The notes under the pieces: model-generated | Databases searched by the model: none | Seen by the model: only the letters and a program-made list of their open reading frames with translations | What the model was told of the DNA's origin: nothing | Translations under genes and position numbers: made by a program | Shown: one piece after another, positions 57,895 to 64,000 of the stretch | Position numbering within the stretch: position 1 is the first letter of the stretch | Layout: each line of letters starts with the position of its first letter | Assembly: GCF_028416635.1 (NCBI RefSeq) | Contig: NZ_CP114013.1 | Coordinates: 2,666,001 to 2,730,000 of the forward strand | Direction of reading: 5' to 3' | DNA length: 64,000 bases | Source of the DNA: Baekduia alba | Lineage (GTDB): Bacteria; Actinomycetota; Thermoleophilia; Solirubrobacterales; Solirubrobacteraceae

Positions 57895-58115
57895 GCGGTC
57901 GTGAGATCCCGATCCGCGGCGACATGATCCGGCTCGGCCAGCTGCTCAAGCTCGCCGACGTGGTCGACGGCGGCGGCGAGGTCAAGGACTTCCTGGCCGA
58001 GGTCGCGGTGCTCGTCAACGACGAGCCCGAGAACCGCCGCGGGCGGCAGCTGCATCCGGGCGACGTGGTCGTCGCCGGCGACGAGGAGCTGCGGATCGTC
58101 GGGGGCGACGCGTGA
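57891..58115 (+). CDS. S4-domain RNA-binding protein (YaaA/RlbA-like)
   Basis: 74 residues that are almost only an S4 RNA-binding domain: IRLGQLLKLADVVDGGGEVK, FLAEVAVLVNDEPENRRGRQ, LHPGDVVVAGDEELRIVG. Stand-alone S4 proteins of this kind are found next to dnaA/recF or rRNA-related genes; finding one between membrane and VWA genes is unusual. GTG start overlapping the previous stop; its own stop overlaps the next GTG, so translation is coupled on both sides. Confidence 0.85.
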   Translation: MSGREIPIRGDMIRLGQLLKLADVVDGGGEVKDFLAEVAVLVNDEPENRRGRQLHPGDVVVAGDEELRIVGGDA

Positions 58116-59815
58116 AGCGCGGACAGGTCCTGATCCTCGCGTTCGCCGCGGTCGCGATCGCGGTCCTCGCCCTGATCGGCAGCAGCGGCGGCAAGGACGA
58201 CAACAAGAGCGCGTCCACGCAGACCACCGCCACCGGCCCGGTGCAGCGCGCGCCCGACGGCGCCGTGGTCGTCTCCTTCGCCTACTCGCCCGAGAAGGAC
58301 GCCCTGCTCAAGCCGCTGATCGCGCGCTTCAACGCCTCGGGCGCGCAGGTCGACGGCAAGCGGGTCTTCGTCCAGGGCACGAGCGTCGCCTCGGGCGACA
58401 GCGAGCTGGCGATCGCCAAGGGCCGCTCCAAGCCGGTCGCGTGGTCGCCGGCGTCGTCGCTGTGGGGCCGGCTGCTGAACTTCGAGGCCGACCGCTCCTA
58501 CGTCGCCGACGAGAACCCGTCGCTGGTGCGCACGCCATTGGTCATCGCGATGTGGGAGCCGATGGCGCGCGCGCTCGGCTGGCCCAAGAAGCAGCTCGGC
58601 TTCGCCGACATCCTGCGGCTGGCGCGCTCCGGCGCCGGCTGGGGCGCCTACGGCCACCCGGAGTTCGGCGACTTCAAGCTCGTCCACACCAACCCGGACT
58701 TCTCGACGGCCGGGCTGTCGAGCGTCGTGGCCGAGTACTACTCGGCGACGGGCAAGAAGGAGGGGCTGGTCGAGTCCGACCTCCCGGCCGCGCGCGCCAA
58801 GGTCAAGGCCATCGAGTCCTCGATCGTCCACTACGGCGACACCACGCTGTTCATCGAGGACCAGCTCAAGAAGGAGGGCCCGGGCTACGCGTCGGCGGTC
58901 GCGCTGGAGGAGGCGACGCTCGTCGACTTCAACCAGCACCGCGGCTCGCAGGGCAAGTTGGTGGCCATCTACCCGCGCGAGGGGACGTTCTACAGCGACG
59001 ACCCCTACATCACGCTCGACGCGCCGTGGGTGAGCGCCGCGCAGAAGCAGGGCTCGGCCGCCTTCCAGAAGTTCCTGACCGGTGCGCTGACGCCGGCGGC
59101 GGTCGCCCGCTACGGCTTCCGGCCCGGCGACGTCGACGCCAAGCCGGTCGCCCCGCTGGACGCGTCCAACGGCGTGGATCCCGACCAGCCCAAGCGCGTG
59201 CTCGGCCTGCCCGAGCCGCGCGTGCTCGCCGCGCTGAAGAAGGTCTGGCGCGAGGACCGCAAGCCGGCCAACGTCCTGCTGGTGCTCGACACGTCGGGCT
59301 CGATGGTCCAGGAGCAGCGCCTCGCCCGCGCCAAGCAGGGGCTGGAGAGCTTCCTGGCGCAGGTCCAGCCGCAGGACCGCATCGGGCTGACCGCGTTCTC
59401 GGACGAGATCCGCCCGCTGGTCCCGCTCGGGCCGTTGAACGACAACAAGGCGAAGCTGCGCCAGGCCGTGGCCGGCGTCAACGCGTCGGGCGGGACCAAG
59501 ATCTACGACGTCGCCGCCGCCGCGGTCGACGACGTCGCGCGCGTCGCCGACAAGAGCCGGATCAACGCGGTGGTGCTGCTGACCGACGGCGAGGACACCG
59601 ACAGCGACCGGACCGCCGAGGACGTCATCGCCCGCCTGCGGGCCCAGGGCGACTCGTCGCGCCGCGTGCGCGTGTTCACCATCGCCTACTCGGCCGGCGC
59701 CGCCGGCGCGGCGCAGACGCTGGCCAAGATCGCCGACGCGTCCGGCGGCAAGTCCTACGAGGGCACGACCTCCGACATCGAGTCGGTCTACCGCTCGATC
59801 TCGAGCTTCTTCTAG
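58112..59815 (+). CDS. Membrane-anchored solute-binding protein fused to a VWA domain
   Basis: 567 residues. An N-terminal membrane helix (about 5-23) is followed by a periplasmic-binding-protein-like region (about 50-345: VVSFAYSPEKDALLKPLIARF, VAWSPASSLWGRLLNFE, PLVIAMWEPMARALGWP) of the SBP_bac_11 type, and then a von Willebrand A domain (about 385-567) with a complete MIDAS start DTSGSM at 393-398 and LLTDGEDTDSD. It would sit outside the membrane, binding a ligand and, through a metal, another protein. Coupled to the S4 gene before it; the last gene of the operon starts on its stop codon. Confidence 0.85.
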   Translation: MKRGQVLILAFAAVAIAVLALIGSSGGKDDNKSASTQTTATGPVQRAPDGAVVVSFAYSPEKDALLKPLIARFNASGAQVDGKRVFVQGTSVASGDSELAIAKGRSKPVAWSPASSLWGRLLNFEADRSYVADENPSLVRTPLVIAMWEPMARALGWPKKQLGFADILRLARSGAGWGAYGHPEFGDFKLVHTNPDFSTAGLSSVVAEYYSATGKKEGLVESDLPAARAKVKAIESSIVHYGDTTLFIEDQLKKEGPGYASAVALEEATLVDFNQHRGSQGKLVAIYPREGTFYSDDPYITLDAPWVSAAQKQGSAAFQKFLTGALTPAAVARYGFRPGDVDAKPVAPLDASNGVDPDQPKRVLGLPEPRVLAALKKVWREDRKPANVLLVLDTSGSMVQEQRLARAKQGLESFLAQVQPQDRIGLTAFSDEIRPLVPLGPLNDNKAKLRQAVAGVNASGGTKIYDVAAAAVDDVARVADKSRINAVVLLTDGEDTDSDRTAEDVIARLRAQGDSSRRVRVFTIAYSAGAAGAAQTLAKIADASGGKSYEGTTSDIESVYRSISSFF

Positions 59816-61732: not shown

Positions 61733-62056
61733 ATGTTCGACGTCCAGCTGCACTACATCGGCGACACCGACGTCGTCGCACCCGTCGGGGAGCTCGACCT
61801 GGCGACCGCCCATCGGCTCGCCGCCGCGCTCGCCGCCGCGTCCGAGCGCGGCGCGCCGCGCGTCGTCCTGGACCTGCGCCGCCTCACGTTCGTCGACTCC
61901 TCCGGCATCAGCGTCATCGTGAAGTTCAAGCGCCACTTCGCGGGCGAGGGCATCCGCTTCGGCGTCGTCAAGGGCGACGACACGGTCCAGCGCGCGCTCG
62001 CGCTGTCGCACGTCGAGGCGCTGCTGCCGTGGACCGCGCCGCCGCCGGCGGCCTAG
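61733..62056 (+). CDS. STAS-domain anti-anti-sigma factor-like protein
   Basis: 107 residues of STAS fold: VAPVGELDLATAHRLAAALA and VVLDLRRLTFVDSSGISVIV, the latter with the DSSG motif whose Ser is phosphorylated by anti-sigma kinases in SpoIIAA/RsbV proteins. FKRHFAGEGIRFGVVKGDD and a C-terminal helix complete the domain. No RsbW-type kinase or sigma-B gene is nearby. AAGGAG lies 8-9 nt before the ATG. Confidence 0.88.
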   Translation: MFDVQLHYIGDTDVVAPVGELDLATAHRLAAALAAASERGAPRVVLDLRRLTFVDSSGISVIVKFKRHFAGEGIRFGVVKGDDTVQRALALSHVEALLPWTAPPPAA

Positions 62057-63177
62057 CCCGGGTCCGCGTTGCCGGCCGTGAACGTGTCGCAGGCGGCCGG
62101 GGTGCCGGACCGGCGGCCGACGTCGAGCCAGTGGACGCGCTGCGCCGAGGAGCCGTGGGTCCAGGTCTCGGGCGCGAGGTCGGCGCCGGCCTGATTGCGC
62201 TGGAAGTCGTCGCCGACGACCGTCGCGGCGCCGACGATGTCGGCGATGTCGGCCTGTGTGAGGGCGCCGACGCCTTCCAGCTCGTGGAGCCAGACGCCGG
62301 CGTAGCAGTCGGCCTGGAGCTCGAGCGCGACCGAGCGGCGGTTGGCGCCGGCCGGGTCGGAGGCGTCGAGCCGCGCGATCCGGTCGTGGAGGCCGACCAG
62401 CGCCTGGACGTGGTGGCCCATCTCGTGCGCGGTCACGTAGGCGGCCGCGAAGCCGCTGCGCAGGTCGTAGGCCCGGCTCAAGGCCTCGAAGAAGTCCGTG
62501 TTGAGGTACACCCCGTGGGCGGGCGGGCAGTAGAACGGCCCGGTGCTGGCGGTCTGGACGCCGCACGGCGTGTGGATCTGGGTGTGGAAGAAGACGAGGT
62601 GCGCCGGCTCGTAGCGCGCGCCGGCGCCCGCGAACTGGCGCTGCCACATCTCCTGGGCCGAGTCGAAGGCCTGGCGCAGGAACTCCGCGCTGGCCGCCGT
62701 GGCCCCCGCGGTCGACGGGTCTGGCGCCGCGCCGGTCACCGGCAGGCGCATCTTGCGGACCGCCGGGCTCTCCAGCGTGGCGTCCGGCGCGGTCGCCGCC
62801 TGGCTGCCCGAGGACTCCGCGACGAAGCGCGCGACCGCCTGGGCGTCCTCGCCGGCCACGATGCCGCGCGGCATGATCTTCGAGCCGAAGCCGCCGTTGC
62901 GGATCGCGAACAGGACGTCGTCCTCGCTGACCTTGCGGTGGTCGAAGTTCACGCCGTCGGTGCGCTCGCTGCGGTGCACGTCGGTCGCCGACCCGCGCGC
63001 GCCCGCCGCGGCGAGCGTGTGGCAGCCCGCGCAGCGCGCCACGAACAGCTCCTTGCCGGTCGCCGCCTGCTGCTGGGTGGACGTGGTGTCGTCGCCGTCC
63101 GACCCGCACGCGGTCGCGCCGGCCAGCGCCGCGACGAGCGCCGCGGCGACCCCGGCCTGTCGGATGCCGGCGCGCAC
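62053..63177 (-). CDS. c-type cytochrome fused to a YpfJ-type zinc metallopeptidase
   Basis: 374 residues. The N-terminus is a probable lipoprotein signal with the lipid Cys at 24 (AGATACGS). About 38-120 is a monohaem cytochrome c domain: CAGCH at 49-53 and a likely axial Met102 (SKIMPRG). After a linker, about 155-365 is a neutral zinc metallopeptidase: FFHTQIHTPCGVQTASTG, PFYCPPAHGVYLNTDFFEAL, zinc motif HEMGHH at 251-256, and ELQADCYAGVW with the third-ligand acid. Both active sites look complete. The GTG start follows the AbgT stop directly (TAGGTG), so the two are probably co-expressed. Confidence 0.85.
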   Translation of the reverse strand: MRAGIRQAGVAAALVAALAGATACGSDGDDTTSTQQQAATGKELFVARCAGCHTLAAAGARGSATDVHRSERTDGVNFDHRKVSEDDVLFAIRNGGFGSKIMPRGIVAGEDAQAVARFVAESSGSQAATAPDATLESPAVRKMRLPVTGAAPDPSTAGATAASAEFLRQAFDSAQEMWQRQFAGAGARYEPAHLVFFHTQIHTPCGVQTASTGPFYCPPAHGVYLNTDFFEALSRAYDLRSGFAAAYVTAHEMGHHVQALVGLHDRIARLDASDPAGANRRSVALELQADCYAGVWLHELEGVGALTQADIADIVGAATVVGDDFQRNQAGADLAPETWTHGSSAQRVHWLDVGRRSGTPAACDTFTAGNADPG

Positions 63178-64000
63178 CTAGCTCACCGGCGCACCCGGGC
63201 CGAGCGGGATCCCGAGCAGGTACCAGGCCAGGAAGAACAGCGTCCAGAGGATCGACAGCGCGATGACGTAGGGCAGCATCATCGACACGACCGTGCCGAT
63301 GCCGCTGTTCTTGTCATAGCGCTTGGTGAACACCACGATGAGCGGGAAGTAGGCCATCAGCGGCGTGACGACGTTGGTGGGCGCGTCGCCGACGCGGTAG
63401 GCGGCCAGGACCGTCTGCGGCGGCACGCCGAGGCGTAGGAACAGCGGGATGAAGATCGGCGCCAGCAGCGCCCACTTGGCGATCGCCGCCGGGATGATGA
63501 AGTTGATGATCGCGCTGATGATCACCACGCCGAGCAGCAGCCACACCGCCCCGACGTCGATGTGCTCCAGGACGTCGCCGAGCTTCACCGCCGCGACGTC
63601 GGGCATCTTGGAGAAGTTGAAGCAGGCGATGAACTGCGCGATGAGCAGGAACAGGAACAGCAGCGCGGCGAGCCCGGCCCACGACTTCGTGATCGTCGCC
63701 AGGACCTGGTCCTTGGTCGTCAGCGTCCCGGCGCCGCGGCCGTAGCAGAGGCCCGCGACCAAGAACACGAACATGATGATCACGATCAGGCTGTCCATGA
63801 ACGGCGAGTCGCCGATCACCTTGTCGGTCACCGGGTCGCGCAGCGGCGCGCCCGGCGGCGCGGTGAGCAGGACGATGAACGCGATCGCCGCCAGCGTGCC
63901 CCACCCGGCCCAGGCCAGCCCGCGCGACTCGGCCTCCGGCGCGACCTCGGCCACCGCCGGCTCGACCTCGCCGTCGCCGCCCGCGGTCGGGGCCAGCGCC
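63178..64000 (-). CDS. AbgT-family transporter (5' end outside window)
   Basis: 274 codons of the 3' part are visible and the frame stays open to the window edge. At least six hydrophobic segments are seen, with AbgT-like blocks: DSLIVIIMFVFLVAGLCYG, FIACFNFSKMPDVAAV, IISAIINFIIPAAIAKWALL, RVGDAPTNVVTPLMAYFPLI and MMLPYVIALSILWTLFFLAW. AbgT proteins import p-aminobenzoyl-glutamate or export antimetabolites such as sulfonamides. The hydrophilic segment near 63900-63960 belongs to a cytoplasmic loop. It immediately precedes the cytochrome-peptidase gene. Confidence 0.88.
   Translation of the reverse strand, partial: ALAPTAGGDGEVEPAVAEVAPEAESRGLAWAGWGTLAAIAFIVLLTAPPGAPLRDPVTDKVIGDSPFMDSLIVIIMFVFLVAGLCYGRGAGTLTTKDQVLATITKSWAGLAALLFLFLLIAQFIACFNFSKMPDVAAVKLGDVLEHIDVGAVWLLLGVVIISAIINFIIPAAIAKWALLAPIFIPLFLRLGVPPQTVLAAYRVGDAPTNVVTPLMAYFPLIVVFTKRYDKNSGIGTVVSMMLPYVIALSILWTLFFLAWYLLGIPLGPGAPVS

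What the first reader, a model, noticed from the sequence alone, without database searches (positions are those of the whole stretch)
62053..63177. Cytochrome c fused to a zinc metallopeptidase, coupled to an AbgT transporter
A lipoprotein signal, a CAGCH haem site with a candidate axial Met, and a complete HEMGHH peptidase lie in one 374-residue protein. It starts on the base after the stop of an AbgT transporter gene. A redox-gated surface peptidase that feeds a transporter (for example p-aminobenzoyl-glutamate or peptide products) is one reading. The combination is unusual to me.
Basis: partly seen in the sequence, partly recalled or inferred. Interest (0 to 1): 0.7.

Follow-up and report, generated by a model that had tools for sequence, protein, structure and literature searches.

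The report
Cytochrome c fused to surface zinc peptidase
One actinobacterium has joined a common membrane-anchored electron-carrying protein (cytochrome c) to a common surface protein-cutting enzyme; both halves look intact, but no relative searched shares the fusion, so it looks like a one-off domain shuffle and not a general redox-controlled system.

Summary
On the minus strand (63177..62053), one 374-residue frame holds a lipoprotein signal (Cys24), a class I mono-haem cytochrome c (CAGCH 49-53, Met102) and a YpfJ-type zinc peptidase (PF04228, E=1e-63, HEMGHH 251-256, Glu286). Its GTG start follows the TAG stop of an AbgT gene directly.

The fusion is real but, in everything searched, unique to this genome. 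Among 136 distinct peptidase and 56 distinct cytochrome sequences held, no other gene carries both. The closest peptidase (63% identical, same genus) is a plain lipoprotein without haem. The peptidase tree places the fusion on the window's own branch, inside a lipoprotein subclade of YpfJ-like peptidases. The cytochrome half belongs to a small lipoprotein family found in 176 of 232 genomes of the order.

AbgT adjacency is partly meaningful. An M20-AbgT-SLC13 cassette is conserved across the family, but the zinc peptidase sits beside it only here and, rearranged, in one congener.

Best reading: a lineage-specific fusion in which an intact lipid-anchored cytochrome c replaced the anchor and spacer of a lipoprotein peptidase, both domains probably working on their own.

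The parts
62053..63177 (-). Gene for the 374-aa lipoprotein: cytochrome c fused to a YpfJ-type zinc metallopeptidase
   Evidence: GTG start directly after the AbgT stop, GGTGA 5 nt upstream
63106..63177 (-). Signal peptide and lipobox (residues 1-24, Cys24)
   Evidence: Sequence; Cys24-Gly25 near-invariant in 44 standalone cytochrome c lipoproteins of the order
62818..63069 (-). Mono-haem class I cytochrome c domain (residues 37-120)
   Evidence: Pfam Cytochrome_CBB3 and Cytochrom_C; 27 of 32 near-invariant positions kept
63019..63033 (-). Haem attachment motif CAGCH (residues 49-53)
   Evidence: Cys49, Cys52 and His53 invariant in 45 aligned cytochromes
62872..62874 (-). Met102, predicted axial haem ligand
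   Evidence: Met102-Pro103 invariant in 45 aligned cytochromes
62704..62811 (-). Linker, low-confidence in the model; part of it aligns with the spacer of the haem-free congener protein
   Evidence: pLDDT about 47-61; 'APDATLESPAVRKM' against 'APRSPIESEDAQKM'
62080..62703 (-). YpfJ-type zinc metallopeptidase domain PF04228 (residues 159-366)
   Evidence: pLDDT 82-98 over residues 161-360; best structural matches are zincin peptidases
62410..62427 (-). HEMGHH zinc-binding and catalytic motif (residues 251-256)
   Evidence: His251, Glu252, His255 and His256 invariant in all 34 aligned relatives
62320..62322 (-). Glu286, candidate third zinc ligand (LELQAD)
   Evidence: Invariant in 34 of 34; role inferred from zincin families
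63178..64000 (-). AbgT-family transporter, 3' part (the full gene continues outside the window)
   Evidence: PF03806 E=5.5e-150 on the full gene
61733..62056 (+). Convergent STAS-domain gene whose end overlaps the peptidase gene end; not thought part of the system
   Evidence: PF01740 E=4.9e-13

Best explanation
This is a lineage-specific gene fusion. A complete small lipid-anchored mono-haem cytochrome c, of the family that most Solirubrobacterales carry as a separate gene, took the place of the lipid anchor and part of the spacer of a lipoprotein YpfJ-type zinc peptidase. The protein is most likely exported, lipidated at Cys24, given haem by the genome's System I (Ccm) machinery, and held on the outer face of the cell membrane. 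There the C-terminal domain cleaves proteins or peptides. Its products could be handled by the neighbouring M20 peptidase and the AbgT and SLC13 transporters. The cytochrome domain most likely keeps ordinary electron-carrier ability on its flexible tether, acting beside the peptidase and not gating it. Shown: the fusion, intact motifs, uniqueness in the searched set, origin on the window's branch, and presence of Ccm genes. Inferred: localisation, haem loading, protease activity, substrate link, and the independence of the two domains.
For: Both domains by Pfam. The nearest ortholog (same genus) is a haem-free lipoprotein, 63% identical over 241 aa. Peptidase tree: lipoprotein subclade of 8 with SH-aLRT 98, window and congener sisters at 100, all others haem-free. 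Of 136 distinct peptidase sequences only this one has CxxCH. Cytochrome family in 176 of 232 order genomes; sampled members end 2-52 aa after the haem domain. The fused copy keeps 27 of 32 near-invariant positions against 36 of 84 variable ones (Fisher p=6e-5). CcmB, C, E, F and an ABC ATPase present. Peptidase zinc site fully conserved. The YpfJ protein KPN_02809 hydrolyses casein through its HEXXH motif (PMC3269727).
Against: The fused cytochrome has a long branch (0.62; median 0.17) and has lost five near-invariant residues (P76V, S98G, G99S, N105G, Y122S), the most of 45 sequences, so relaxed function is possible. Its divergence may predate the fusion, so conservation is not proof of selection on the fused form. 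There are no expression or biochemical data. One genome gives no orthologs of the fusion to test.
Confidence: 0.6

Rival explanations
1. Spent cytochrome as anchor and spacer: the fusion supplied a working signal peptide and lipobox, and the haem domain is now mainly a structural spacer that is decaying.
For: Five near-invariant residues lost, the most in the set; long branch. The peptidase's lipoprotein relatives have only an anchor and spacer.
Against: All covalent haem and axial ligand residues are kept, and 84% of near-invariant positions against 43% of variable ones.
Confidence: 0.22
2. Redox-gated surface peptidase: the oxidation state of the haem controls the peptidase, for example through the conserved Cys205-Cys217 pair.
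For: Both sites intact in one chain; Cys205 and Cys217 invariant in 34 of 34 aligned peptidases.
Against: The cysteines are equally conserved in haem-free relatives, so they are not tied to the cytochrome. The domains are joined by a low-confidence linker. The fusion is found in one genome only.
Confidence: 0.08
3. Sequencing or assembly artefact that joins two neighbouring genes.
For: Found in a single assembly.
Against: The genome is one 5.86 Mb contig. The frame is open with GC3 of 0.96-1.00 throughout, the linker keeps residues of the congener's spacer, and the start is tightly coupled to AbgT. No held relative has the two genes side by side.
Confidence: 0.05
4. The peptidase acts in turnover of cytochromes or the respiratory chain, with the cytochrome domain steering it to its partner complex.
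For: The donor cytochrome family is near-ubiquitous in the order, and the genome's standalone copy lies about 3 kb from a likely complex I gene cluster (read by eye).
Against: Nothing in the immediate neighbourhood is respiratory; the neighbours are a transport and M20 peptidase cassette.
Confidence: 0.05

Closest known systems
YpfJ / KPN_02809 neutral zinc metallopeptidase (PF04228, NF050010)
   Same: Full catalytic domain with HExGHH, Glu286, His341, Arg347 and Cys205/Cys217 invariant; 36-46% identity to aligned family members
   Different: The N-terminal membrane segment and MKW..DRRG motif of the classical form are missing; a lipobox and a cytochrome c stand there instead
Haem-free lipoprotein YpfJ-like peptidases (same-genus G006, G106, G109, G052, Acidimicrobiaceae MAG, Actinocatenispora)
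   Same: Lipobox, spacer and peptidase; one subclade in the tree
   Different: No cytochrome c
Solirubrobacterales small cytochrome c lipoproteins (resembling Bacillus-type c551, NF045774 E=1.5e-8)
   Same: Signal, lipobox, CxxCH, Met-Pro and GG motifs; 54% identity at best
   Different: They end shortly after the haem domain; the fused copy has lost five near-invariant residues and carries a peptidase
AbgABT (p-aminobenzoyl-glutamate uptake; from general knowledge)
   Same: M20 peptidase gene next to an AbgT gene
   Different: Here a single M20 gene and an SLC13-type permease, with the zinc peptidase added; substrate unknown

Membership tests
PF04228 / YpfJ zinc metallopeptidase | Profile match over the curated cut-off | tested here: met
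   215.6 bits against a cut-off of 23.2
PF04228 / YpfJ zinc metallopeptidase | HExxH with conserved Glu | tested here: met
   His251, Glu252, His255 and Glu286 invariant in 34 of 34
PF04228 / YpfJ zinc metallopeptidase | Classical full-length YpfJ equivalog (NF050010) | tested here: not met
   238 bits against a cut-off of 250; model positions 1-67 unmatched. It is a member of the domain family, not the equivalog form
PF04228 / YpfJ zinc metallopeptidase | Protease activity | not testable with these tools
   Shown for KPN_02809 (PMC3269727)
Class I cytochrome c lipoprotein | Profile match with CxxCH and axial Met | tested here: met
   Two Pfam models over cut-off; Cys49, Cys52, His53 and Met102 invariant in the family
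Class I cytochrome c lipoprotein | Covalent haem and electron transfer | not testable with these tools
   Ccm maturation genes present in the genome
Redox-regulated enzyme | Architecture conserved across genomes | tested here: not met
   1 of 136 distinct peptidase sequences
AbgABT-like operon | AbgT with M20 hydrolase | tested here: met
   PF03806 and PF01546; M20 next to AbgT in 13 of 13 loci
AbgABT-like operon | Transport of p-aminobenzoyl-glutamate | not testable with these tools
   No substrate evidence

The most novel reading that the evidence does not exclude
A membrane-anchored zinc protease whose activity is switched by the redox state of a covalently fused cytochrome c, tying extracellular peptide digestion and AbgT/M20 uptake to respiratory state.
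Probability: 0.06. Interest if true: 0.65.

Novelty: new variant of a known kind. Interest (0 to 1): 0.27.

Why it matters
No other cytochrome c / PF04228 fusion turned up in the searches, nor any report of one in the open-access papers held, so it appears to be a new combination of two well-known parts. If the haem is loaded and the peptidase active, it would be a natural test of whether an electron carrier can be tethered to, or can influence, a surface protease. As a single-genome fusion its general importance is limited.

Tried and rejected
Searched for the fusion in 7 genus, 146 family, 232 order, 399 class and 396 phylum genomes (overlapping sets), in the GTDB r220 contig scan and in PLSDB plasmids: none. 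Looked for the two genes side by side in relatives (a possible ancestor): none in 155 peptidase loci. ResB / System II was sought for haem attachment: absent; System I is present instead. Orthology of the fused cytochrome to the genus's own copy is not favoured: the own copy groups with genus members (98/91) away from the fused one. The AlphaFold model leaves the cytochrome half unmodelled, since only peptidase rows were in the alignment, so no haem-to-zinc distance could be read. The Foldseek PDB search had no hit at E<=0.001; the VIA-align rows at Z 8-9.5 are mostly zincin peptidases, which agrees with the family but is not strong alone. Paper searches on cytochrome/peptidase fusions gave nothing relevant.

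Full report
Observation. The finding is correct, on the minus strand. The frame 63177..62053 encodes 374 residues. It starts with GTG on the base after the TAG of the AbgT gene, with GGTGA five bases upstream. Pfam finds Zn_peptidase (PF04228, E=1.4e-63, residues 159-366) and two cytochrome c models (E=3.9e-6 and 1.8e-5, residues 37-120). The GC content of the third codon position is 0.96-1.00 in the signal, haem, linker and peptidase segments, so nothing suggests a frameshift or a non-coding bridge.

Cytochrome half. A family of small cytochrome c lipoproteins with the same signal, lipobox and haem region occurs in 176 of 232 genomes of the order. Apart from two rows that matched a wrong frame and were left out, the sampled members end 2-52 residues after the haem domain. 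In an alignment of 45 sequences the fused copy keeps the lipobox Cys, both haem Cys, His53, Met102 and 27 of 32 near-invariant positions, against 36 of 84 variable positions equal to consensus (Fisher p=6e-5). It has however lost five near-invariant residues, more than any other row, and its branch is long. It does not group with the genus's own copy, which sits in a genus clade with 98/91 support; its nearest rows belong to another genus, without support. Haem attachment is plausible because the genome has CcmB, CcmC, CcmE, CcmF and a CcmA-like ATPase, though no ResB.

Peptidase half. It is the only PF04228 gene of the genome. The 34-row alignment shows His251, Glu252, His255, Glu286, Asp290, His341, Arg347, Cys205 and Cys217 invariant. 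Cys291 and Cys363 are present or lost together, which suggests a second disulphide. The model of this half has pLDDT 82-98 over residues 161-360, and its best structural neighbours are zincin peptidases. Classical family members carry an N-terminal membrane segment with an MKW..DRRG motif. A subclade of eight, including this one, has a lipobox and a Ser/Thr-rich spacer instead. A YpfJ protein, KPN_02809, has been shown to digest casein through its HEXXH motif (PMC3269727).

Distribution of the fusion. The closest relative, in the same genus, is a 315-residue lipoprotein peptidase without haem, 63% identical over 241 residues. Its spacer aligns with part of the window's linker (APRSPIESEDAQKM against APDATLESPAVRKM), so the cytochrome lies between the lipobox region and the old spacer. 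In the tree the two are sisters (100) inside the lipoprotein subclade (98), all other members haem-free; by parsimony the fusion arose on the window's branch. Of 136 distinct peptidase and 56 distinct cytochrome sequences held, only this gene has both, and no held peptidase locus has the cytochrome as a neighbour. The searches covered the genomes held and kept only the best-scoring peptidase loci, so a divergent fusion elsewhere is not excluded.

Neighbourhood. In this genome the order is SLC13-type permease, M20 peptidase, AbgT, then the fusion, all on one strand. M20 beside AbgT is conserved in all 13 Solirubrobacteraceae loci examined and the permease in 11 of them (of the two exceptions, one ends at a contig end and the other has an IS21-type pair in that place). 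The zinc peptidase is next to the cassette only here and, divergently oriented, in the congener. Lipoprotein peptidases elsewhere do not sit by AbgT. The cassette thus exists without this peptidase; the link is a genus-level association that survived a rearrangement, which mildly supports a shared role in peptide or N-acyl amino acid use.

Mechanism. The most likely picture is a lipid-anchored surface peptidase whose anchor was replaced by a complete, probably haem-loaded cytochrome c, with the two domains acting independently on a flexible tether. The main alternative is that the haem domain has become a mere spacer. Redox gating is possible but has no positive evidence: the peptidase and its cysteines are just as conserved without any cytochrome.

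Verdict. Real and, as far as searched, undescribed as a domain combination, but a single-genome fusion of two known families.

Noticed in passing
L032 9179-13800; L220-L230; L033 4194-8727: A three-gene cassette M20 peptidase - AbgT - SLC13/CitMHS permease with TrkA_C is conserved in Solirubrobacteraceae; the gene order is permuted in the window's genome (permease first).
   Followed up: partly
L033 8820-9767, L133, L134, L144, L034 8358-9278, L053 3338-4246, L054 5836-6738: A subclade of YpfJ-type peptidases is lipobox-anchored and lacks the usual transmembrane N-terminus (one side of a branch, SH-aLRT 98).
   Followed up: yes
window 62527-62565 (Cys205, Cys217) and relatives: Cys205 and Cys217 are invariant in the aligned YpfJ family; Cys291 and Cys363 are kept or lost together, suggesting two extracytoplasmic disulphides.
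   Followed up: partly
window 61733-62056: A STAS-domain gene converges on the fusion gene and overlaps its end by a few bases.
   Followed up: no
window 58112-59815: One protein combines an extracellular solute-binding domain (SBP_bac_11) with a VWA domain and a signal-like N-terminus.
   Followed up: no
L220 127-2102: An IS21-type transposase and IstB pair lies where the SLC13 permease is expected, downstream of AbgT in G106.
   Followed up: no
L033 11177-13843: Near the congener's peptidase lie a peroxidase gene (PF00141, catalase-peroxidase-like) and a Fur-family regulator.
   Followed up: no
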